Virus record (IMG/VR): IMGVR_UViG_3300032299_000539
Location: 1-38,995 of that record
Strand: one strand, 5' to 3'
Length of the DNA: 38,995 bases
Source: a virus
Of the stretch, positions 11,902 to 36,868 are shown piece by piece. Position 1 is the first letter of the stretch, and each line of letters begins with the position of its first letter. The notes under the pieces were generated by a model. It was not told the origin of the DNA. It worked only from the letters and a program-made list of their open reading frames with translations, and did no database searches. The position numbers and the translations under genes are program-made.

Positions 11902-12744
11902 ATGCATCAAGATAAAGCAATTGGTATGTTCATGGGTCTGTTCATTGGAGATGCACTGGGTGCTCCATTGGAATTCATCAGGCCACATGAGATGACACAC
12001 ACATTGACAGAGATGGAGGGTGGTGGTGTGCATAACACTGCCGAGGGTGAATGGACAGACGATGGTGCTATGGCTGTGGCTATTGCCGATGCATACATCA
12101 GTAACCAATACTTCAACCCTGAAACCATTGCCTTCAACTTCAAGATGTGGAAGAAGACAGGTCACTTTGGCACTAGAGATTATGTCTTTGACATAGGCCG
12201 TACATGTAGCGAGGCCATCGATAGAATGGCAGTGACACATCCATATGCAGGGAGCTGTAGTTTCAATGCCAGTGGCAATGGTTCTATCATGCGAGTAGCT
12301 CCCATTGTGCTTGCCAATCACAACAATTTGTCTAATGCTGTGGCACAGGCTGTGGCTGTGTCATTGATGACACATGGCAACATAGACACCATCAACTACA
12401 TATCAGGGTTTGTCACTGAGCTTATGTCAGGGAAGAAGGAGGACAGCTTCAACTACCTCCGCTACTATCGTGACCCTAACAGTGGTGGCACTATCATGCA
12501 TGCCTACATCACAGCATGGGAATGTGTAGAAGAAACATCAAGCTTTGAGAAAGCTTTGATCATGGCAGTGAACAAAGGTTATGACGCTGACACTGTTGGT
12601 GCTGTCACTGGTATGTTGGCAGGGCGTAAGTATGGCTTGAAAGGTATACCCACTAGATGGCTAGACAAGCTAGTGAAGAAGGATGAACTCATTGATATGG
12701 CAGAAAAACTTTATGCACTGGGAGGTGATGATGGAAAAGAATGA
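11902..12744 (+). CDS. ADP-ribosylglycohydrolase (ARH/DraG family), 280 aa
   Basis: This family removes ADP-ribose from modified proteins or nucleic acids using two Mg ions. Visible motifs: GLFIGDALGAPLEF near the start; the metal motif WTDDG (residues 51-55; many members read TDDT or TDDS, so Gly55 is a variant); FNASGNGSIMRVAP; and GYDADTVGAVTGMLAG (226-241), with metal ligands D228 and D230. Length is normal. ATG 11902 with RBS AAGGAAA is chosen; upstream frame would run into the DUF932 gene. In this phage it may reverse host-applied ADP-ribosylation or a mark made by a virion protein. Confidence 0.9.
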   Translation: MHQDKAIGMFMGLFIGDALGAPLEFIRPHEMTHTLTEMEGGGVHNTAEGEWTDDGAMAVAIADAYISNQYFNPETIAFNFKMWKKTGHFGTRDYVFDIGRTCSEAIDRMAVTHPYAGSCSFNASGNGSIMRVAPIVLANHNNLSNAVAQAVAVSLMTHGNIDTINYISGFVTELMSGKKEDSFNYLRYYRDPNSGGTIMHAYITAWECVEETSSFEKALIMAVNKGYDADTVGAVTGMLAGRKYGLKGIPTRWLDKLVKKDELIDMAEKLYALGGDDGKE

Positions 12745-12916
12745 TATGGAAGCAGCGTTCCCCGATCAATACAGAGATGGCATGACTTTGCGTGACTACT
12801 TCGCAGCTAAAGCTATGGCTGTGTTGATGACCAGTTCGTGGAGCATTCCACATGCTGAAGTGGCAAGCAAAGCTTATTGGTTTGCTGAAGAGATGATGAA
12901 GGCGAGAGAGCAATGA
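12731..12916 (+). CDS. Small phage protein, 61 aa
   Basis: Contains GMTLRDYFAAKAMAVLM and YWFAEEMMKAREQ, a pattern typical of small phage and prophage proteins ('GMTLRDyFAakAm... aYa-ADaMlkAR'). Its role is unknown. Start 12731 is 5 nt after RBS GGAGG; ATG 12728 is too close. The end overlaps the integrase start as ATGA. Confidence 0.78.
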   Translation: MEKNDMEAAFPDQYRDGMTLRDYFAAKAMAVLMTSSWSIPHAEVASKAYWFAEEMMKAREQ

Positions 12917-14013
12917 CACTACCTCGCTATGTGGCACTGGCTAAAGCCTCTGAAGGTGTAACTAAGTACAGGTACAACCCACCACAGGATGCTGTTGATG
13001 CAGGTGTGGTGGCTAGGCGTGTGCTTGGCACTGACAAGTCTAAAGCCTTTGCTTTAGCTGAAGAGCTGAATGCACAGCTAGACAACTGGCGTAAAGAACT
13101 TCGCTACCTTAAAGATATTTCAGAAGATACGAAGGTGGTTGATCTTATCAAAGCGTATAAGAACAACATCACTTATACCAAACTAAGTATAAAGGCACAG
13201 CGTGACTACATCTACTATCTACAGGGATGGCAGGATAGCAAGGCCAATGGCATACCTCTATATCAATGCAAGCTAGGCAGCTTAGTCACTCCGCATTGTC
13301 AGAAGATATATGAACAACATGCTGAGCACAGTGTTAGCCTAGCTAACCACACCTTAGCTGTCTACAGGTTGCTATTTAATTTCGCTATTCGTCATGGCTA
13401 CATCACACACAATCCATTCAGCAAGGTGCTGAGAAGATCAGACAAACCTCGCAGGGTGGTGTGGACAAGAGAAGATGTTAGAGCATTCATGAACACTGCT
13501 TACAGCACATTCAAGTGGCGTAATGTAGGACTCATTGTGCAGATGGGTTATGAATATGGACAGCGTATGGGTGATATGCGTAAGCTTAGATGGGATCAGG
13601 TAGATCTAGAGAAGGGTGTGTTGCACTTGGAACAAAGCAAGCGTAGGTCTAGGGTGACTATACCGACAAGTGCAGGGCTGTTAGCTATGCTGAAGCAACA
13701 GCATGCTGAGTTTGGGTGGCAGCAATATATTGCACCATCCAACAATCCCGATAGGAAGGGTGGCCTACTGCCTTACAGCTTGTTCAATCTGTCTAGAGTG
13801 GCTAAGCAAATCATGACTGAGGCAAGTCTGCCTAGTGACTTGGTGTTGCAAGACCTACGAAGGACAGCCATCACAGAGATGATTGAGGTGGGTGTACCCA
13901 TCACCAACATCATGTCAGTGTCAGGCCATGCCACACCGCAGAGCCTAACACCATACATCAAGAACACTTTGCGTAGTGCAACAGTGGCTCAGGATATGAG
14001 GGAGCTTATATGA
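12913..14013 (+). CDS. int: Tyrosine recombinase / phage integrase, 366 aa
   Basis: Site-specific DNA recombinase with an N-terminal arm/core-binding region (about 70-170) and a catalytic domain (about 180-366). Catalytic residues: R218 (YGQRMGDMRKLRW), K243 (EQSKRRSR), R316 (LQDLRRT), H339 (SGHAT) and nucleophile Y348 (PYIKNT). The usual His of the HxxR box is Gln313, a known kind of variation. The protein would integrate the phage, but no repressor or attachment site is recognised, so lysogeny is unproven. It overlaps both neighbours by 4 nt. Confidence 0.93.
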   Translation: MTLPRYVALAKASEGVTKYRYNPPQDAVDAGVVARRVLGTDKSKAFALAEELNAQLDNWRKELRYLKDISEDTKVVDLIKAYKNNITYTKLSIKAQRDYIYYLQGWQDSKANGIPLYQCKLGSLVTPHCQKIYEQHAEHSVSLANHTLAVYRLLFNFAIRHGYITHNPFSKVLRRSDKPRRVVWTREDVRAFMNTAYSTFKWRNVGLIVQMGYEYGQRMGDMRKLRWDQVDLEKGVLHLEQSKRRSRVTIPTSAGLLAMLKQQHAEFGWQQYIAPSNNPDRKGGLLPYSLFNLSRVAKQIMTEASLPSDLVLQDLRRTAITEMIEVGVPITNIMSVSGHATPQSLTPYIKNTLRSATVAQDMRELI

Positions 14014-25283: not shown

Positions 25284-25719
25284 AGAACTCCACGACACCT
25301 ACGACAAGTTTGGAAGAGATGTAGTTAAAAGCTATGTCTCTTCTTTTTGGAATATGGAAGCTAGAGATAATCCCAATAGATATGGGATTGATCTGCATCT
25401 GTATAAAGATGATTTGTTGGTGGGGTATGCTGAGGCAGAGGTCAGACTATCGTGGAAAACTGTAGAGTTTCCATACGAAGATTTGAATGTACCTGCTAGG
25501 AAGAAGAAGCTCTTAACACAAGAGATGCCTACACACTTCTTCTCAATTAACAAAGATGGAACAGCCTTGTTTCATTGCGAAGCTGCTGCTGTATTAGCTT
25601 CAGAAATTAAAGAGTCTAGAAACAAATATGTCTACCAAGGAGAACTCTTTTACAAGGTTCCTCTTGATAGACTTTCTTATGTAGTATTATCTACGACTGG
25701 CGAGGCCACCCTTAGCTAA
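25261..25719 (+). CDS. Possible restriction-endonuclease-like protein, 152 aa
   Basis: Contains YGIDLHLYKDD, then AEAEVRLSWKTVEFPYEDLN, then VPARKKKLL and PTHFFSINKDGTAL. Asp in the first motif and Glu-x-Glu near the Lys-rich part could form a PD-(D/E)xK site; this is a motif guess. ATG 25261 is chosen; an upstream in-frame ATG at 25135 would overlap the previous gene fully. The last 33 nt overlap the converging 1756-aa gene on the other strand. Confidence 0.62.
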   Translation: MATKRFDKELHDTYDKFGRDVVKSYVSSFWNMEARDNPNRYGIDLHLYKDDLLVGYAEAEVRLSWKTVEFPYEDLNVPARKKKLLTQEMPTHFFSINKDGTALFHCEAAAVLASEIKESRNKYVYQGELFYKVPLDRLSYVVLSTTGEATLS

Positions 25720-28700
25720 GCCAATTCTCTTTTTAGTTTCTTTATCTCTGTAGGTTCCACCTACCAAGTCTCTAATAGCATCAACAGCTTTAATCTCTTC
25801 TCTATTGATATCTTTTAATACAGAGCTAGGTGTGTCCATGCCTACATTGTATTTACGCAACACTTTGAATTGATCTTCCAATACTCTCAAAGCTTCTGCC
25901 TTATCTTTATTACCCACTTTTTCAAGAGAAGCAATTACTTTAGGAATGAAGTCATCAACTTCCATGTAGATGTCGGATTGATTCTTAGCGAACATCTTTA
26001 ATCTACCTGCTGTTGTTTGACTACTCTTAATGATAGGGGTTTCTCCAGCTTTTAAAGCTGCTGCGCCACCTGTCTCTCTAAATTCATTCCTGATAATACT
26101 ACGAATGGTTCTGTAAGCATTCAAGGATTGGACTTCTTCACTCCCCCTACCACCTTCTTTAATAGGCTTCATAGTTTCTGGAACAAGAAAATCATCCTTT
26201 ATACTTTGTAACTTGTACATAGCCATTCGTTTAACTTTATCTTGTTGTTCGGCTAAAGGAATCTTCTTTTCTGTCTCTCTCATGTTTCTACTAATAGCAA
26301 GCTTTTCACTCTCAGTAAAAGCATCTTCTGTTTCTTTTAAGCCAAGAGAACGAGGAATACCTAAAGGACGAGCAACAGTAGGACTACCAGTGATAGAACG
26401 AGCTATGGTATTCATGTCACCATTACCAGCAGACTTTCTATATTGTTCCATAGGCATGTTAATTCTTCTAAATTCATAATCAGCGTATGGAATCTTAGTC
26501 TCTAAAATATTAGCAGGTTCTTTGCCACCAAAGCGAGGATCACTTAGATTAAATCTAATGTCTTTAGTAAAGGAAGTTGCTCCAATATTTAACTCAGTGT
26601 GCCAAGTGTCTGAAATATTTTGTGGGTCAGTAAACCCTCTCTTTAAAATATCATCAGCATTTGTTTCTGTACCATGATAGAGGGTTACTGGTGGCCTATC
26701 TTTATATTTAACACGCAAATCATCCAGCTTCTTTTGTAATGGAATAGAGAATGAAACAAAATCTTCTACAGCTTTTGGATCATTAACATCTACTTCTTTA
26801 CCTTTGGCTGCTCTGTATTCACCCTGAGCTACAGCAATAACATCATCCTCAATCTTACCTGCCACATTAGGCATTTCAATAAGTTTATCAAAGGCGTTAG
26901 TTCTAAGGTCTTTTAGTGAAGAGAGTGTGTTTTGTCTTGTCTCTAAACCAGTACCAAACTTAGGTTTATTAAGATTTATTTCAGACAGTTCCTTCATATA
27001 AGGAGATATAGGTTCTTCCATAGGAAGATCTGTTTTAATTTCTGGAACCACTTCAGGCTCTATCTTAGGGGGTGGAACAGCCTCAGCTTCTGATACAAGC
27101 TTTTCCATCTCAACATCAACTGGCTTAGGCTGAGATACAGCAGGACCATACTTGTTCTTAACATAGGGTGTCTTAGCAATAGCAGATGCAGGTGCAGCTA
27201 GTGCTTGTGCTGTTTGCTGTGTAACAGGAGTAACAGAATGCTTGGTAATAATATCACCAAGAGACATTGTTCCTCTTTTAATACCAGCCTCAGCAGCTTC
27301 ACCAACAATCTTCTTAGCCATTGAGCCGCCAACACTCATCTTCACAACACCACCAGCAGCATAACCAGAACTAATTAGTCCTGTATCTTTAGCTAAAGTA
27401 ACTGCTTCTTTGTAGTCTGTAGCTGGATCAAAAGGTCTACCAAACACTTCTCTAAACTGACTACTAATGACTTTCAGCTTAGAAGCTGTAAGCTTCTTCA
27501 TTTGATTTTCATACAGAGAAGCTTTACCAAGATCTCTTACATCACCGCCTACAGCATATCCGGGCAGCTCTCTCATGGCTGCAGCAATTGCTAGAGCAGA
27601 AGCATAGTCTTTGGTTGTTTCTAAATCCTTACCTTGTTGTTGTTTATATGTTTCAACAACAACACGCTTAAGTTCTGCTGGTAGCTTAGAGTATTGTACT
27701 TCGTACAAGCGAGGTTGTTTACCAGCAGCAAAAGCTGCTGCTTCATCTTTACTAGTAGCAATTTCTTTAGCTGTTTTCTGCGCCCACCCAATCAGATTCT
27801 GTAGAGCTATCTTCTGCAGATCTTTACTAGCTTCTGAATAGAAACTAGTATTCTTAAGATTGTCAAACTGTTCCATAACCAATGGAGCCATAACCTTACG
27901 AGCTTCAGCATCTACAATCTTGTCACCAGTGGTGGTGAAGATTTTATTAAAAGGTACTTTGAGTCGAGAAACTTCACCTTCAAGTTCAGAAGGCACTCCT
28001 TTAATAGCAATACCCGATAACATCTTCAATGGACCATTGTCATTAAAGGCTGCTGTTTCTCTCAATGGTGGTTGATATACTGGAAGCTCTTGTTTCAATA
28101 TAGGAGTACGCTTCATCAACTGTTGTGTAGCTGAAGAAGTAAAGCCTTCCTCACCTGCCGGAATCTGATAAGCATCTCTAGGCAGAGTTTCGTTACGATC
28201 AATAGCACCAATGATGTCGCTGATCTGTTGGAAAGGAACAAGTGCTCTACCTAAATATTCACCAACCCACTCACCAAAGAATGTCTTAACTTTGTTATTT
28301 GCTGTGTCTTCGCCAGTCCCTGCATTGGATTGTGCTTCAGCAAACTTATCACCAAGCCATGAATATGTACCTGCTGGTGCTTTGAAACCAGTCATGGCTT
28401 CTAAAAATTCTTTAGATTTAAATTCGTCTGTTCTACCATTTTGAAATTTAACAAGGTAGTCACCTAGTGCTAAGAAAGGAGCAGCAGGAAATAAAGCTCT
28501 AGCATCTACAGTGGAGCCATCAGGATTCTTTGTGTTGTACCACTCAGTGTCTTGATTTTCTTGTCTATATTTATAAGCAGCATACAAAGCAGCAGTGCCT
28601 ACAGCACCTTTAGAAAAGTTCTCAAGTCCTATAGTGACTTGTTTAGTTCCCATATCAGCTTCACCCTTAGCCATCTTTGTCAAACCAGCAGCAATGTCTG

Positions 28701-30957
28701 TGCTGCCAGATAAAACACCAGTAGGCATGTGCTTATATGTCCACTCCATAGCATTAGCCATGAAGCGTGGGAAAGGAATAACTGTAGAGCCAATAGGACC
28801 AAGCTCTTCAATAAACTTCACAGCATGGAACATTGGGCCTTTGGTAGGCATCTTGCTGAATGTACCTGTTAGTGCTTCATTAACAGCATTCTGTAACACA
28901 TCAAAAGGTACTTGCTTACCTTGGGCAATAACGTCATACATGTTAATACCAACACGGCTTAATTGCTTCTCCACTGAGGAAGTGAACATAGCCTTGCGGA
29001 AGAAAGCATCCTGTGCTACGTTGAATGTGTTAGCAATTTGTGCTGCCTTAGACAAGTCATTAGGACCAGCTTCGCCTGTTGTCTTAACCATCCTTCGATA
29101 TAAAGCAGGAGTACCATTAAGCAAAGCTTCTGTCACTTCAGAAGACAAGTCTCTTTGGCCTAAGTAGAAAGCAGAGCGTACAGCATCATCATAGACACCC
29201 TTTAAGCCACCAGTGAAACTACCTGTTACTGGCTTACCAGTGGCAAGTTCTCCTGCTGTCTTTCCTAGTCTATATAAAGAAGATTCAATAGCTTCTGCTG
29301 CTGTACCAAAGGTAATGACAGACACACCAGAGAAGGCGTTCCTAAGAGTTGTAGAAAGCTGAGACACCATCAAGGCTTTTAGCTCTCTATCAAGACGCAT
29401 ACCAAAGTCTCTAACACCAGTGAATGCAGAAGTTACAGCACTTCTATCACCATACATCTTATTCAGTTCAGATGCAGCAGCAGGGTCAATGTTCTTCAGT
29501 TTGTTTTGTAAGCGAGCAACTACAGATAGGCTCTGCAAAGAACGAGCAGCATCCCCTGCTGAAGTTCTAAACATCTTAGCAAACTCATCTGGTGTTACAT
29601 CGGCAGAGGCCAATGCTCTCTCGAACACAATGTCATCAAATGTATCTACAGATTCTAGTGTACGTTTAATAGCATCAGAAACTTTCTCTGTAGCTTGAGG
29701 AGCAAGCTCAGGCATTTGTTTCCAAATGTCTTGAGCAATCAGTGTAGCTCTCTTGTTAAGATCGTTCCTAACTTCCATCTGAGCTACAGACGTAGGCTGG
29801 CCTTGAGCATCAAGAAGCTTACGTCCTTCATAGATGTCATAAGCATCTTCCAATGCTTTATCTGTTGGATCTTTTGGTGTTACTTCTACCTTAGGTGCAG
29901 GTGTTGTTGGTTCACCAACAGCTGGCTTTCTAGATTTAAGAATTTCATTTAGTTGACTAGTCTTACCTTTGACAGCTCCACGCAGGAAAGGAAGTACTTC
30001 TACTGTTTCAGTGACAGCACCAATAGCACCAGCTAAGGCAACTTCTTTTCCTCTAACACCTTCTTGCAGTCTCTTCTCTCTATCTTCAACATATGTTTTT
30101 AATAGAGCTTGTCCTGTTGCATCTAATGTAGCAGGATCAATCTTTTTAGCTTGATCAAGCTCAGCTTGAGCTACATTCAATTCAATCTTTTGAGTAGTGA
30201 CATTCTGAGCAGCGGTGGTAATGCCACCAACAGCAGGAGTAGCAGTAGCCATCCCAACACCTTTAGCGGAAGTTAGTGCAGCTTTGGTTCCTTTTTCTGT
30301 TATTAGTTTAGATAGGCCACTAGTAGCCACCTTACCAGTACCTAAGGTTAGGGCTGTAGATGGGCTACTAATAATACTAGAGATAGCATCGATTACTGGA
30401 CGGAATCCCTTTTGTCCTCTATTCTTTTCATCAAACACACCAGCAGTGTTCTTGAACAAATCATAAGCAGCACCTGCTTTTAAAATGTCTTCTTTCTTGG
30501 CATTGTTTAAATACTGCATCTCCCCCACACTATCAATTTCATTACCAAAATCAAGTCTCCTCATGTGTGTAGCGAAACGATTAACAAAGTCTTGTTTTGT
30601 TTCACCTTTTCTAGGAGTGCCTTCTTGCTGCCCAAACCGAGCAAGAGCATATTCTTGAATAACTTTATAGTTGTTGTTATCTTTCCACAAAGCATCAAAA
30701 GGAATCTTCTTTGCTTCTTCTTCTCTAATATCTGCTGCTCTTTTCACCAAAGCTGTAGCTTTCTGTGGACGAACAAAGAAGGAGGGTTTAGTTAAATCTT
30801 CTACTGGTGTAGGGGCAGCAGTTTGAGGTGCTGGTGCAGAAACAAAAGAAGAAAATTCATCTTTCTTTGTAGGAAGAAAAGAAGAAAACTCATCTTGTGG
30901 AGGAGAAGCAGAAGCCCCCGTAGGGGCTGCAGTAAAGAGGTCAAATTCATTTGCCAT
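25687..30957 (-). CDS. Giant internal virion protein with putative ADP-ribosyltransferase domain, 1756 aa
   Basis: Likely injected with the DNA. The N-terminus has DEFSSF repeats and is Ala/Pro-rich. The middle is helical, with a region (VSQLSTTLRNAFSGVSVITF) like large polyvalent virion proteins. An AAGGVVKMSVGGSMAKK linker (near 1210) leads to the C-terminal part. This part has VTLYHGTETNADDI (H1428, G1429, T1430), NIGATSFTKDIRFN (S1462) and ILETKIPY (E1486), in the order of ADP-ribosyltransferase His/Ser/Glu motifs. The function is inferred. The gene ends convergent with the 152-aa gene and is the last of the leftward late operon. Confidence 0.85.
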   Translation of the reverse strand: MANEFDLFTAAPTGASASPPQDEFSSFLPTKKDEFSSFVSAPAPQTAAPTPVEDLTKPSFFVRPQKATALVKRAADIREEEAKKIPFDALWKDNNNYKVIQEYALARFGQQEGTPRKGETKQDFVNRFATHMRRLDFGNEIDSVGEMQYLNNAKKEDILKAGAAYDLFKNTAGVFDEKNRGQKGFRPVIDAISSIISSPSTALTLGTGKVATSGLSKLITEKGTKAALTSAKGVGMATATPAVGGITTAAQNVTTQKIELNVAQAELDQAKKIDPATLDATGQALLKTYVEDREKRLQEGVRGKEVALAGAIGAVTETVEVLPFLRGAVKGKTSQLNEILKSRKPAVGEPTTPAPKVEVTPKDPTDKALEDAYDIYEGRKLLDAQGQPTSVAQMEVRNDLNKRATLIAQDIWKQMPELAPQATEKVSDAIKRTLESVDTFDDIVFERALASADVTPDEFAKMFRTSAGDAARSLQSLSVVARLQNKLKNIDPAAASELNKMYGDRSAVTSAFTGVRDFGMRLDRELKALMVSQLSTTLRNAFSGVSVITFGTAAEAIESSLYRLGKTAGELATGKPVTGSFTGGLKGVYDDAVRSAFYLGQRDLSSEVTEALLNGTPALYRRMVKTTGEAGPNDLSKAAQIANTFNVAQDAFFRKAMFTSSVEKQLSRVGINMYDVIAQGKQVPFDVLQNAVNEALTGTFSKMPTKGPMFHAVKFIEELGPIGSTVIPFPRFMANAMEWTYKHMPTGVLSGSTDIAAGLTKMAKGEADMGTKQVTIGLENFSKGAVGTAALYAAYKYRQENQDTEWYNTKNPDGSTVDARALFPAAPFLALGDYLVKFQNGRTDEFKSKEFLEAMTGFKAPAGTYSWLGDKFAEAQSNAGTGEDTANNKVKTFFGEWVGEYLGRALVPFQQISDIIGAIDRNETLPRDAYQIPAGEEGFTSSATQQLMKRTPILKQELPVYQPPLRETAAFNDNGPLKMLSGIAIKGVPSELEGEVSRLKVPFNKIFTTTGDKIVDAEARKVMAPLVMEQFDNLKNTSFYSEASKDLQKIALQNLIGWAQKTAKEIATSKDEAAAFAAGKQPRLYEVQYSKLPAELKRVVVETYKQQQGKDLETTKDYASALAIAAAMRELPGYAVGGDVRDLGKASLYENQMKKLTASKLKVISSQFREVFGRPFDPATDYKEAVTLAKDTGLISSGYAAGGVVKMSVGGSMAKKIVGEAAEAGIKRGTMSLGDIITKHSVTPVTQQTAQALAAPASAIAKTPYVKNKYGPAVSQPKPVDVEMEKLVSEAEAVPPPKIEPEVVPEIKTDLPMEEPISPYMKELSEINLNKPKFGTGLETRQNTLSSLKDLRTNAFDKLIEMPNVAGKIEDDVIAVAQGEYRAAKGKEVDVNDPKAVEDFVSFSIPLQKKLDDLRVKYKDRPPVTLYHGTETNADDILKRGFTDPQNISDTWHTELNIGATSFTKDIRFNLSDPRFGGKEPANILETKIPYADYEFRRINMPMEQYRKSAGNGDMNTIARSITGSPTVARPLGIPRSLGLKETEDAFTESEKLAISRNMRETEKKIPLAEQQDKVKRMAMYKLQSIKDDFLVPETMKPIKEGGRGSEEVQSLNAYRTIRSIIRNEFRETGGAAALKAGETPIIKSSQTTAGRLKMFAKNQSDIYMEVDDFIPKVIASLEKVGNKDKAEALRVLEDQFKVLRKYNVGMDTPSSVLKDINREEIKAVDAIRDLVGGTYRDKETKKRIGLAKGGLASRR

Positions 30958-33089: not shown

Positions 33090-36000
33090 TTATTTCTTCT
33101 CCAGATCATTCAATCGTGTAGAAAGCAAATCAACCTTAGTGATGAGTTCATTAACGGAAGCCACTAACAAACCAGTAATTGCTGCATAATCTACCATGTC
33201 CCAATTTGGATTAAATGGGGTGGGCTTAACAGCTTCTGGCAACACCTTCTTAACTTGCCCTGCCAATACACCCATTGTAGTGATTGTACTATTATGACCA
33301 AAAGGCTCAGTCTCTACTTTATAAGTATAGGAGTATCCACCAATTTCTTTAATTTTATCTAAAGCATTAGTGATTGGCCCTTGTATATCCTTCATTCGTT
33401 CATCACTTGACATGAGAAGCATAGCTGTTGCCTTAGCTGCTGTAGTTATGAGGCTTCCTGTTGCTTTGGTCTTTTCTGCTGCTACCCCTGCATTTTTTGT
33501 GGCATCTGCTTGTATTGCAGAAATTGCAAGTTTGTTAGCTCTATCTTCATCGTTTTGTCCTTGTTGCCAAGCAAAAGAAACACTGTCTCTATAAAGCTGT
33601 GTCTGATTATTATATTCTGCCAATGTCATATTCTGTGACAACTGTGCATTCAAGCTGTTTGCTGCGTTTGTAGCTGCTGTGTTAGCAGTTGAAATCTCTC
33701 TTAGCCACTGAGCATTAGATTGATCAATAACCAATCGTTGAGAAGCATTAAAAGCTTGTCTTTGATTCTGTGCTTCTGTATTAAACTTAGCTATAGAGTT
33801 TGCTTGATCAGTGTTAAACTGACTAACTGCTGTAGTTTGTGTTGCATTAAATTGACTAACTTGTGTAGCCATTGTTGCATTAAATTGAGTGACTTGATTT
33901 TCACTAGCAGCATTAAATTGCTTAGCAGCATTGGCAGAAGCAGTGTCTGATAACAATGCTTGTGTTGTTGCTTGTGCTTTAAACAATATGGCTTGCTGTG
34001 TATTGTCTAAGTTCTTCATGTCCATAGCTAGGAAAGCCTGAGCATTAGTAACAGCAGCTTGCTGTCTAGCATTCAGGTTTGCCATGTCCATAGCAGCATA
34101 ATTAGCAGCATTGGCTAACACTGTGGCTTGCTGATTACTTAAATCAGCTAAGTTAACTTGCTGGATAAGCTGTGAGTTTGCCAGTGCTGTTTGTTGGTCT
34201 GCTGTGAAATTAATGTTAGCAATCTCAGACACACGGGCAGCATTGGTTATAGACACTTGCTGTCTATTGCTAAGCTCTTGTCCTTTTAACGCTGCTTCAA
34301 TTTGAGCATTAGCCAACGCTGTCTGTTGTTTGTTAGACATGTTAGCAACTTCAATTTGCATAGCATTGGTTGTGTTATACAAACGTGTTTGTTGTTCTGC
34401 TGTAAGATTTAAATTTCTTTCTTGCAATACAGAAGAAACATTAAACAAAGCTGTTTGTTGCTTGTTCTGCAACACTTGACCTTCCATAGCTGCTCTAGCT
34501 TGGAAGTCTTGAATGAATGCTTGTTGTTTATTTGTTGCATCAAACTTAGCATCTTCAAAGTTTTGTGTGCTTTGAAGCATTGCTGTTTGTTGTTCATTAG
34601 AAAGCTCTTGACCAACAATGGCTGCTCTAACTTGCAGGTTAGCAAGAGATGTTTGTTGACGAGCATTCAGATTTGCTAAATCAATTTGTATATTCTCAGC
34701 AGATCTTTGCATAGCTGCTTGCTGTGCATTGCTAAGATTGATGTTATTAACTTCAGCATAACGAGCAGCATTAGTAATAGCTACCTGTGTTTTAACACTT
34801 AAGTTCTTTTCTTCAGCCGCAGCTTTAAGCTGTGCATTAGCTAACACAACTGCTTGTTGATTAGAAAGATTTTGGCTTTGTAAAGCAAAGGAATTAGCAC
34901 TGTTCTGTAAAGCAGCTTGCTGACGATTGTTTAGGTTAGCTAAGTCCATGTTCTGCAAAGCAGCAGCATTTGCAAGAGACACTTGTTGTCTATTGTTTAG
35001 GTTTGTTAAACCCATTGTTGCAAATGCCTGAGCATCTGCAGCAGCAATAGGAACAGCAGATTCCATAGCAGCTTGTACAATGGCAGCACCAGCCATGCTA
35101 CTTGCTCCTAGACCTCTAGCTGCCATAGCAGCATTAGCAGCTCGCATAGCACCCGCAGCCCAAGCAGGAGTGCCATCATTAAACTGCTGCATCAGCTTAT
35201 CCATCTGACCAGCAACAGTAGCAGCAGCTTCAACAGTACCTGTCTGTGCTGTAGCTAATGACTGACTAAAGCTTCCTTGCTGTGCTGTAGCTACAGCTGC
35301 ACTGTTCAATGCATCCATTGTTGCAGCCACAGCTTGTACAGCTTCAAGCTGTAAGCCTTGCTTAGCTACATCAACCAGTTCTTGCTGTGTTACAGCACGT
35401 TGCTGAGAAACAGCAGTGGAAGTGGCTGTTGTTTGTTGGGAAGTAGCAGAAGGAATCTCTGCCGCTTTAGCTGCAGGTAACACAGCAGGAGCATCCATTG
35501 AAGCATATCTAACTTCAGGAAGTGTATATTCTGTTTCTGCTTTAGCTTGAGGAGTGCCTGTAAGTTGTGCTGCTTGTGCTGCAAATGTTTTATCTGTAGT
35601 GGCTGCAGTAGCTTTAGCTGGTCCACCAACATCTGCCATTGTAGCAGCTTTAGCTAGTTGTCCTTCTGTTAATGCCAAGTCAGGAACATTTGCCACTTGT
35701 GCTGCAGCAGGAGCAGTAGGAGCTTTTGCAATAGCTTCTTTAGAAATCTGTCCTTGTGCCGCTGTAACTTGTGCCTCTTTTGATACTGCACCAGTAGCTC
35801 CAGTGACACCAGCCAATGCTTCTCCAACTGCAGGAGCAGCTTTAGAAGCTTCATATGTAGCCGCTGGCCCAGTTTGAGTGGCTGTAGCTTGTCCTGCCGT
35901 GGCAGTAGCAGCCCCTGTTACCTGTGTTGCTGTCTCACCAGCCCTGCTTTCTGTGCTTATTTTTTGAGCATCAGTAGGAGCAATTTGTGCAGCAGTTACT

Positions 36001-36560
36001 TGAGAAGCTTTTCCAGCAACGGGAACAGGAGCAATAGGTGCTACAGCAGGTGTTGATCCTCTTGTGGCAGAAGCTGCTGGGGTTGCTGTCCCTGCTGCTG
36101 ACTGTATTTCTGATGGCTGTAATGCTGCATTTCCTGCAGCACCCTTAGGTACTTGGATGTAGTTAGGCGTACCATCATCATTATACCCTTGCTGCATCAC
36201 ATCGTAGTCTTGTCCTGAAGATGTTGCTGGTGTTGTTGGTACTGGAAGTGCTACAGATTGTGTAGGTGGATTCAAAGTGGGTAAGTTATCCTCACCACTA
36301 GAGAAAGGCATACCAACTCCCATGCCTGAACCACCATCCTCATTAACACCAGCAACAAGATCACCACCAACACGATAGTTACGTTTATTTTTTACAAGCC
36401 CACCCTTAGCCATACGCTCAGCATACTTACCAGTGATGGCAGAATACTTAGCCTCTAACGCAGGAGAGGAAGCAATGAACTCATCAAAGCCTTGCATAGG
36501 GCCATCATAGCCTAGTTTTCTAGCTACTATTTCCTTTTGTTGTGCTGTAAAATCTTTCAT
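33090..36560 (-). CDS. Tail fibre with S74 self-cleaving chaperone, 1156 aa
   Basis: The N-terminus (1-80) ends in a Gly-rich AKGGLV linker. Residues about 130-450 are Ala/Thr/Gln-rich low-complexity sequence. The long middle (about 480-920) is a repeat of about 33 residues with LxNxQQxAxxNA, coiled-coil-like and rich in Gln/Asn. The C-terminus has SDERMKDIQGPI (S1052, K1057), the S74 peptidase motif; by homology to endosialidase it cleaves before S1052, releasing a 105-residue trimerisation chaperone after folding. It ends in a coiled coil. Likely the host-binding fibre, or a central fibre; the receptor is unknown. Confidence 0.88.
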   Translation of the reverse strand: MKDFTAQQKEIVARKLGYDGPMQGFDEFIASSPALEAKYSAITGKYAERMAKGGLVKNKRNYRVGGDLVAGVNEDGGSGMGVGMPFSSGEDNLPTLNPPTQSVALPVPTTPATSSGQDYDVMQQGYNDDGTPNYIQVPKGAAGNAALQPSEIQSAAGTATPAASATRGSTPAVAPIAPVPVAGKASQVTAAQIAPTDAQKISTESRAGETATQVTGAATATAGQATATQTGPAATYEASKAAPAVGEALAGVTGATGAVSKEAQVTAAQGQISKEAIAKAPTAPAAAQVANVPDLALTEGQLAKAATMADVGGPAKATAATTDKTFAAQAAQLTGTPQAKAETEYTLPEVRYASMDAPAVLPAAKAAEIPSATSQQTTATSTAVSQQRAVTQQELVDVAKQGLQLEAVQAVAATMDALNSAAVATAQQGSFSQSLATAQTGTVEAAATVAGQMDKLMQQFNDGTPAWAAGAMRAANAAMAARGLGASSMAGAAIVQAAMESAVPIAAADAQAFATMGLTNLNNRQQVSLANAAALQNMDLANLNNRQQAALQNSANSFALQSQNLSNQQAVVLANAQLKAAAEEKNLSVKTQVAITNAARYAEVNNINLSNAQQAAMQRSAENIQIDLANLNARQQTSLANLQVRAAIVGQELSNEQQTAMLQSTQNFEDAKFDATNKQQAFIQDFQARAAMEGQVLQNKQQTALFNVSSVLQERNLNLTAEQQTRLYNTTNAMQIEVANMSNKQQTALANAQIEAALKGQELSNRQQVSITNAARVSEIANINFTADQQTALANSQLIQQVNLADLSNQQATVLANAANYAAMDMANLNARQQAAVTNAQAFLAMDMKNLDNTQQAILFKAQATTQALLSDTASANAAKQFNAASENQVTQFNATMATQVSQFNATQTTAVSQFNTDQANSIAKFNTEAQNQRQAFNASQRLVIDQSNAQWLREISTANTAATNAANSLNAQLSQNMTLAEYNNQTQLYRDSVSFAWQQGQNDEDRANKLAISAIQADATKNAGVAAEKTKATGSLITTAAKATAMLLMSSDERMKDIQGPITNALDKIKEIGGYSYTYKVETEPFGHNSTITTMGVLAGQVKKVLPEAVKPTPFNPNWDMVDYAAITGLLVASVNELITKVDLLSTRLNDLEKK

Positions 36561-36868
36561 ACTTTTCTTGGTTTCTCTATTGCTTCAGTCAAATAAGCAA
36601 GCATATCTCTGTTATCTCTTAGAAGTGCTATCACTCCTACAGTTACACAATACACTTGTCTCTCTGACATTTTTAATTGGAAGCAGTCGTCTATAGCGTG
36701 AATACATTCATGTAACAATGTATCTACAGCCGCCAAGGGGTGCTGACCAGACTTAATTTTAATTGAATAGTCTTCATAACTATACTCACCTAGTTGGCTG
36801 GGAAGTTCGTCCACAACCTTTACAGGTACTTCTCTGCCTACAATACTAAGAGAAGTTGGTAACATCAT
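36557..36868 (-). CDS. Zincin-like HExxH protein, 103 aa
   Basis: LLHECIHAIDD holds HExxH (H53, E54, H57), and E69 (KMSERQ) could be the third zinc ligand. The surrounding helix is followed by VGVIALLRDN. This is the pattern of small phage zincin-like metallopeptidases; the substrate is unknown. It lies between the fibre and the lysis genes and ends overlapping the fibre start by 4 nt, so a role in virion maturation or lysis is possible. The RBS is weak (AAAGAG). Confidence 0.82.
   Translation of the reverse strand: MMLPTSLSIVGREVPVKVVDELPSQLGEYSYEDYSIKIKSGQHPLAAVDTLLHECIHAIDDCFQLKMSERQVYCVTVGVIALLRDNRDMLAYLTEAIEKPRKV

What the first reader, a model, noticed from the sequence alone, without database searches (positions are those of the whole stretch)
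25687..30957. Possible ADP-ribosyltransferase domain in an injected virion protein, paired with an early ADP-ribosylglycohydrolase
The C-terminus of the 1756-aa late protein has, in order, YHGT (H1428), ATSFTKD (S1462) and ILETK (E1486) with the spacing and hydrophobic surroundings of an ADP-ribosyltransferase fold. The early gene at 11902-12744 is a clear ADP-ribosylglycohydrolase. T4 uses injected Alt ADP-ribosyltransferase; a writer in the virion plus a newly made eraser in one phage would be a timed, reversible modification system. I know of no described podovirus example. Seen: the motifs. Inferred: the fold and the pairing.
Basis: partly seen in the sequence, partly recalled or inferred. 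Interest (0 to 1): 0.85.

Follow-up and report, generated by a model that had tools for sequence, protein, structure and literature searches.

The report
Virion ADP-ribosyltransferase with matching phage eraser
An uncultured virus of bacteria carries, at the end of a large protein probably injected into the host, a previously unrecognised enzyme domain predicted to attach ADP-ribose tags, and it always travels with a separate gene for an enzyme that removes such tags, so the two probably work as a pair.

Summary
In 63 distinct relatives H1428 and S1462 are invariant, but E1486 is not (5/63). An invariant E-x-E, E1542/E1544, sits 82 residues after S1462, the usual ART spacing. Two AlphaFold2 models (window; 47%-identical relative L163; pLDDT 86) give Foldseek lists in which all top-50 PDB hits are ADP-ribosyltransferases. 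No Pfam or NCBIfam family or PDB sequence profile recognises the domain. The early gene is a clear DraG/Tri1-type ADP-ribosylglycohydrolase (Pfam E 7e-53) with catalytic motifs intact. Although 13 kb apart on opposite strands, the two are always found together: in HMO-2011-like records of 49 kb or more, 13/13 with the ART module have the hydrolase and 0/18 without it do; all three state changes on the core-protein tree involve both, and one lineage lost both. The ART module is a cassette: separate gene in some relatives, fused here, absent from HMO-2011. Best reading: an injected ART effector with an enzymatic antidote or eraser. ART in a podovirus virion protein and phage ART-ARG pairs are each already described, so this is a new variant of a known kind. 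Activity and injection are untested.

The parts
25687..30957 (-). 1756-aa late protein carrying the ART domain at its C-terminus (predicted ejection/internal virion protein; orthologue of HMO-2011 phage1322_22)
   Evidence: ORF and translation; residues 466-914 match HMO-2011 and CRP phage orthologues at about 27% identity; same gene position as in HMO-2011
28078..29610 (-). residues 450-960, core shared with HMO-2011-type phages with or without the ART module
27343..27363 (-). residues 1199-1205 (YAAGGVVKM region): fusion point between core protein and ART-bearing module
   Evidence: relatives L098, L078, L076, L081, L083, L090, L074, L080 encode the module as a separate downstream ORF; HMO-2011 orthologue ends without it
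25690..27345 (-). residues 1205-1756: C-terminal module (linker, ART domain, helical tail)
26242..26730 (-). residues 1410-1572: predicted ADP-ribosyltransferase domain
   Evidence: AlphaFold2 pLDDT 86.2 and 86.3; Foldseek top 50 all ARTs
26674..26676 (-). H1428, predicted catalytic His of strand 1 (LYHGT)
   Evidence: invariant 63/63
26572..26574 (-). S1462, predicted Tyr/Ser position of strand 2 (GATSFTKD)
   Evidence: invariant 63/63
26500..26502 (-).
   Evidence: E in 5/63, otherwise mostly Y or Q
26326..26334 (-). E1542-T-E1544, ExE motif; E1544 is the best candidate for the catalytic glutamate
   Evidence: both Glu invariant 63/63; 82 residues after S1462; start of a strand in the model
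11902..12744 (+). ADP-ribosylglycohydrolase (DraG/Tri1/ARH type), 280 aa, early strand
   Evidence: PF03747 E 7.1e-53; nearest solved structures 2cwc, 6dre, 2woc
12052..12063 (+). WTDD motif of the hydrolase (residues 51-54)
   Evidence: T52, D53, D54 invariant in 17 phage homologues
12370..12375 (+). TH motif of the hydrolase (residues 157-158)
   Evidence: invariant; catalytic TH motif of ARGs as described in PMC9503650
12583..12606 (+). DADTVGAV metal-binding motif of the hydrolase (residues 228-235)
   Evidence: D228, D230, T231 invariant
12913..14013 (+). tyrosine integrase downstream of the hydrolase; fixed neighbour used to locate the hydrolase slot in relatives
   Evidence: PF00589 E 7.8e-17

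Best explanation
Residues about 1410-1572 of the 1756-aa late protein form an ADP-ribosyltransferase of the diphtheria-toxin/PARP-like (H-Y-E) side of the superfamily, in H-S-E form (H1428, S1462, E1544). It rides as a C-terminal cassette on the conserved HMO-2011-type protein that is most likely ejected into the host with the DNA, where it would use NAD+ to tag a host macromolecule at once. The phage also makes a DraG/Tri1-type ADP-ribosylglycohydrolase from its early strand. The hydrolase most likely removes the tags this ART adds: mainly as an antidote that protects the infected cell and phage machinery, above all when large amounts of the ART are made late and before packaging, and possibly also to end the first, injected wave of modification. 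Shown: motifs, conservation, fold prediction, intact hydrolase motifs, joint presence and joint loss. Inferred: NAD+ transferase activity, injection, target, chemistry match between writer and eraser, timing.
For: H1428, S1462, E1542 and E1544 invariant in 63 distinct domains down to about 40% identity. AlphaFold2 models of the window domain (pLDDT 86.2, pTM 0.77) and of a 47%-identical relative (86.3, pTM 0.81, five models 82.8-86.3). All top-50 PDB fold hits are ARTs in both searches: best 1dtp E 3.5e-3 prob 0.99, 9g7o E 6.7e-3. Viral fold library: best is a family member, next a phage NAD+ ADP-ribosyltransferase and the IIV6 PARP-like protein. Hydrolase: Pfam E 7e-53, nearest solved structures 2cwc and 6dre, catalytic motifs invariant. 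Co-occurrence in records of 49 kb or more: 13/13 against 0/18. Further records holding both hydrolase and core protein also carry the ART: G074, G086, G092, G093. Three changes of state on the core tree, both traits changing together each time, one-clade tree rejected. Sister genomes G034/G036, 93-97% identical over much of the early region, differ by a precise hydrolase deletion and loss of the ART module.
Against: No curated sequence profile recognises the domain as ART; profile comparison with a phage PARP-like family matches only around HGT (p about 0.01). Fold E-values are individually modest (best 3.5e-3), TM-scores mostly 0.3-0.47. Only three state changes exist, so the linkage is not beyond chance by a formal sign test, and G034/G036 also differ at about a dozen other segments. 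The writer and eraser are not adjacent. Characterised DraG/Tri1-type hydrolases mostly serve arginine-specific R-S-E ARTs, while this domain looks H-Y-E-like. Virion location is not shown.
Confidence: 0.62

Rival explanations
1. The ART is active and injected, but the hydrolase counters host-made ADP-ribosylation (defence ARTs such as DarT- or CmdT-like) or soluble ADP-ribose signals, not the phage's own ART. The two co-occur because both belong to one clade's accessory set.
For: The genes lie 13 kb apart on opposite strands. Phage ADPr-processing enzymes as counter-defence are argued in PMC9503650. Sister genomes differ in other accessory segments too.
Against: Predicts genomes with hydrolase but no ART; none seen among 13+18 near-complete records. 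The hydrolase was deleted in the same lineage that lost the ART. PMC9503650 itself argues that ARGs prefer macromolecular adducts.
Confidence: 0.2
2. The domain has an ART fold but is a pseudo-enzyme or binding module (as in PARP13), used structurally or to bind a nucleotide or host protein.
For: No sequence-level match to active families. Tyr of the H-Y-E triad is Ser here. PARP13 (2x5y, 4x52) is among the fold hits.
Against: H, S and both Glu of ExE are invariant across divergent relatives, typical of catalysis. Strict association with an intact hydrolase.
Confidence: 0.12
3. Not an ART: an unrelated small alpha/beta domain whose HGT and SFT motifs resemble ARTs by chance, such as an oligomerisation or head-tail packing domain of the ejection protein.
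For: Fold E-values above 1e-3, TM about 0.4; no profile hit.
Against: Two predictions on different members give hit lists made up entirely of ARTs across several independent ART families. Motif order and spacing H-34-S-82-E match the superfamily. Co-inheritance with an ADP-ribosylglycohydrolase would be unexplained.
Confidence: 0.06

Closest known systems
ART domains of phage polyvalent proteins (ART-PolyVal / Tox-ART-HYD2), prototype Roseovarius Plymouth podovirus 1 virion RNA polymerase (PMC5512222)
   Same: ART in a very large late, virion-associated protein of a podovirus; His in strand 1
   Different: That family is H-Y-D; here H-S-ExE and no PolyVal Pfam match. The core is the HMO-2011-type protein, not an N4 vRNAP/MPTase protein.
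T4 Alt (packaged and injected ART)
   Same: Works-like: ART carried in the virion to modify host proteins early
   Different: Alt is of the R-S-E clade; this domain has His instead of Arg at the first position and PARP/diphtheria-like fold hits. T4 has no phage-coded eraser as far as I know (own knowledge).
ART-ARG pairs of Aeromonas phages (Aeh1 ORF131 PARP-like and ORF132 ARG; PMC1524935, PMC9503650) and DraT-DraG
   Same: A phage coding for both an ART and an ADP-ribosylglycohydrolase
   Different: There the genes carry consecutive numbers and are read as a toxin-antitoxin pair. Here the ART is fused to a late structural-strand protein and the hydrolase is unlinked and early.
Tre1-Tri1 and Imm-ARG enzymatic immunity (PMC3482391; PDB 6dre)
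   Same: Hydrolase homologous to enzymes that protect against an ART effector by removing its tag
   Different: T6SS/polymorphic toxin setting and R-S-E ART effectors; here a phage with an H-S-E domain.
Phage PARP-like proteins (Vibrio phage KVP40.0290, Bacillus phage G gp53)
   Same: HGT motif and PARP-like annotation or weak profile match; the nt-1 protein appears in the viral fold list
   Different: Stand-alone proteins of large myoviruses; sequence similarity to this domain limited to the HGT region.

Membership tests
ADP-ribosyltransferase superfamily | split beta-sheet ART fold | tested here: met
   Predicted, not solved: two AlphaFold2 models; all top-50 PDB fold hits are ARTs
ADP-ribosyltransferase superfamily | three conserved active-site positions (His/Arg, Tyr/Ser, Glu) in order and spacing | tested here: met
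Clustering of the three in the model was not measured (coordinates not available)
ADP-ribosyltransferase superfamily | recognised by a curated ART profile | tested here: not met
   no ART family in Pfam or NCBIfam; only a trace phrog_5470 RNA 2'-phosphotransferase match E 0.16 in 2 members
ADP-ribosyltransferase superfamily | NAD+ binding and transfer | not testable with these tools
   needs an assay
H-Y-[EDQ] clade (PARP/diphtheria-like) | nearest structures in this clade, with H, Y and E | tested here: inconclusive
   fold hits are almost all of this clade but Tyr is replaced by invariant Ser
ART-PolyVal / Tox-ART-HYD2 | H-Y-D active site and profile match | tested here: not met
   no Pfam match; Ser and ExE in place of Y and D
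T4 Alt/VIP2 family | R-S-E active site | tested here: not met
   invariant His at the first position
T4 Alt-like injected effector (works like) | packaged in the virion and delivered with DNA | not testable with these tools
   inferred from fusion to the HMO-2011-type late protein and late-strand position
ADP-ribosylglycohydrolase (PF03747) | profile match above the curated cut-off | tested here: met
   180.6 bits against 26.2
ADP-ribosylglycohydrolase (PF03747) | metal-binding DD/DxDT and TH motifs | tested here: met
   invariant T52-D53-D54, T157-H158, D228-x-D230-T231
Tri1 equivalog (NF041672) / DraG equivalog (TIGR02662) | score above the equivalog cut-off | tested here: not met
   172.8 against 490 and 135.7 against 337
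ART-ARG toxin-antitoxin locus | adjacent genes in one operon | tested here: not met
   13 kb apart on opposite strands
HMO-2011-type podophage group | homologous late protein and gene order (late block meeting RNR genes tail to tail) | tested here: met
   about 27% identity, so a divergent branch

The most novel reading that the evidence does not exclude
These podophages run a two-stage, self-limiting ADP-ribosylation programme: an ART ejected from the virion modifies the host at entry, and a newly made early hydrolase strips the tags once phage functions take over and keeps the newly made ART harmless until packaging. Writer and eraser are inherited as one functional unit although unlinked in the genome.
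Probability: 0.3. Interest if true: 0.85.

Novelty: new variant of a known kind. Interest (0 to 1): 0.62.

Why it matters
It adds an ART family that current profiles miss, in a widespread group of uncultured HMO-2011-like podophages, and gives a rare case where a probable ejected effector and its enzymatic eraser are strictly co-inherited although unlinked. The sister genomes G034 and G036 (with and without both genes) make it testable whether an early eraser is an antidote to a phage's own injected effector, and ADP-ribose-specific detection could then reveal the host target.

Tried and rejected
E1486 as catalytic residue: rejected by conservation. Pfam, PHROGs and NCBIfam scans and PDB sequence profiles for the ART: no informative match. 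Sequence search of the domain in deposited phages and in 84,980 prokaryote genomes: nothing, so the family is so far confined to uncultured HMO-2011-like phages. Profile-profile bridge to phage PARP-like proteins: only the HGT motif aligned. Apparent exceptions (ART seen, hydrolase not) were checked with the neighbouring integrase and primase: the contigs end before the hydrolase slot, or hold no integrase. L143, with no ART hit, is merely cut by its contig end. Direct evidence of virion location for this protein group: none found in the papers held.
Full report
What was checked. The ORF at 25687-30957 is on the minus strand and encodes 1756 aa. The three motifs are at the stated residues and each occurs once. 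The ORF at 11902-12744 on the plus strand is an ADP-ribosylglycohydrolase by Pfam (PF03747, E 7.1e-53) and PHROGs (E 6e-48).

What the window is. Residues 466-914 of the long protein match the corresponding late proteins of Puniceispirillum phage HMO-2011 and Roseobacter CRP phages at about 27% identity. Gene order agrees: late genes on one strand meet ribonucleotide reductase and other early genes on the other strand. The window is thus an uncultured, divergent HMO-2011-like podophage. The HMO-2011 orthologue is 1128 aa and ends before the region in question; CRP-603 and ctYwJ313 orthologues are 1152 and 1218 aa and also lack it.

Conservation test of the motif. Relatives were collected from viral contigs and aligned. 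In 63 non-redundant domains, H1428, G1429, S1462, F1463, D1466, E1542 and E1544 are invariant; E1486 is Glu in only 5 (earlier sets). The better triad is H1428, S1462 and E1544, spaced 34 and 82 residues apart. From general knowledge, PARP1 has H862, Y896 and E988, spaced 34 and 92.

Fold test. AlphaFold2 on residues 1388-1600 with 53 sequences gave pLDDT 86.2 and pTM 0.77, but the other four models scored 74-77. A second prediction on relative L163 (47% identical) with 60 sequences gave 86.3, pTM 0.81, and all five models at 82.8-86.3. In Foldseek against the PDB every one of the 50 best hits is an ART for both models: diphtheria toxin fragment (E 3.5e-3, probability 0.99), exotoxin A, cholix, Jlx, tankyrases, PARP10, PARP13, RES toxin and, once, pertussis S1. 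Individual E-values are modest and TM-scores mostly 0.3-0.47, so the argument rests on the unanimity of the lists plus the invariant residues. In the viral library the best hit is a family member called 'large polyvalent protein associated domain', followed by a phage NAD+ ADP-ribosyltransferase and an iridovirus PARP-like protein. Sequence profiles do not see the relation, and a comparison with a phage PARP-like profile aligns only the HGT motif.

Anatomy of the module. In several relatives (L098, L078, L076, L081, L083, L090, L074, L080) the ART-bearing part is a separate ORF directly after the core protein's stop codon. In the window it is fused, at about residue 1205, after a YAAGGVVK sequence that resembles the C-terminal AKGGLASRR of the whole protein. 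In L171 the slot holds a short different domain, and related copies of that domain occur in about 20 other viral contigs. So this end of the protein is a place where cassettes are exchanged. The ART family was not found in deposited phages or in prokaryote genomes.

The hydrolase. Its nearest solved structures are 2cwc (ADP-ribosylglycohydrolase), 6dre (annotated ADP-ribosyl-(dinitrogen reductase) hydrolase; from my own knowledge this is Tri1) and DraG. It falls below the NCBI equivalog cut-offs for both Tri1 and DraG, so it is a family member but not assigned to either. GDALG, WTDD, TH and DADT are conserved in 17 phage homologues. In the window and in sister genome G034 it lies just upstream of the integrase.

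Linkage test. Records of at least 49 kb: ART present in 13 (G001, G002, G004, G008, G010, G012, G014, G015, G016, G017, G034, G035, G089), hydrolase in all 13. ART absent in 18 (G036, G047, G057, G059-G061, G063-G068, G090, G091, W02-W05), hydrolase in none. Smaller records with the hydrolase and the core gene all have the ART (G074, G086, G092, G093). Records with ART but no visible hydrolase end before the slot or hold no integrase. On a careful tree of the core region the state changes three times (3-3 over bootstraps) and both genes change together each time; a single ART+ clade is rejected. G034 and G036 are 93-97% identical over much of the early region. G036 lacks the hydrolase by a gene-precise deletion that leaves its start (ATGACGTTAGA), and its ART module (1745 bp) is replaced by 386 bp. 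Caution: three changes cannot reach significance in a sign test, and the pair differs at about a dozen other segments, so the linkage is strong in pattern but limited in independent events.

Mechanism. Most likely an ejected ART effector with a phage-encoded eraser. An antidote role is favoured because the ART is made late in bulk, the hydrolase is a homologue of an immunity enzyme, and the hydrolase is lost when the ART is lost. A timed reversal of the injected wave is possible and not excluded. A hydrolase aimed at host ART defences would not predict the joint loss. Early and late are inferred from strand and gene content, not from expression data.

Prior art. ARTs are the commonest predicted protein-modifying domains of phage polyvalent proteins, and one sits in the virion RNA polymerase of a podovirus (PMC5512222). 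About 3% of sipho- and podoviruses carry ARTs, ARGs are much rarer than macrodomains in viruses, and an ART-ARG pair is described in Aeromonas phages (PMC9503650; also PMC1524935). Enzymatic Imm-ARG immunity is described in PMC3482391. What is new here is the unrecognised H-S-ExE family, its cassette nature in HMO-2011-like phages, and the strict co-inheritance with an unlinked hydrolase.

Noticed in passing
window 25687-30957 (residues 1134, 1199, 1747), 714-992 (residue 53), 33090-36560 (residue 50); also G034: A short [YML]A-x-GG-[LVD] motif recurs five times in three of eleven late-strand proteins (0.23 expected by shuffling). It sits at the end of the protein, at the fusion point of the ART module and inside other late proteins; it may be a processing or packing signal.
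   Followed up: partly
L171:8080-8469 (residues about 1187-1300): Where the ART module is missing in G036, the slot holds a short domain (YDYRAAWKAG...HPTAWKEYFMRDTG) whose homologues occur at 54-85% identity in about 20 other viral contigs (L429-L450), so it looks like a mobile cassette.
   Followed up: partly
L289:4600-4730 against L288:3560-4520: Gene-precise deletion of the hydrolase in G036 leaves its upstream region and the remnant ATGACGTTAGA, pointing to loss rather than absence of gain.
   Followed up: yes
L069: ART domain about 50% identical to the window's while the core protein is only 39% identical, suggesting the ART cassette is exchanged between cores.
   Followed up: partly
L382:101-1219 (KVP40.0290), L384:101-1207 (nt-1), L380:10182-11315 (phage G gp53): KVP40-type 'hypothetical proteins' carry a YHGTS motif and are relatives of a protein annotated as a PARP catalytic domain; the phage G protein scores PF00644 E 2.5e-4.
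   Followed up: partly
window 36557-36868 (-): 103-aa late-strand protein with an HExxH-like motif (LLHECIHAID) and no Pfam match; possible small metallopeptidase.
   Followed up: no
window 33090-36560 (-): 1156-aa tail-fibre-like protein with many degenerate ANLNNRQQ-type repeats ending in a Peptidase_S74 chaperone domain.
   Followed up: no
window 12913-14013 (+): Tyrosine integrase directly downstream of the hydrolase in an otherwise lytic-looking genome; an integrase is also present in HMO-2011 beside the primase.
   Followed up: no
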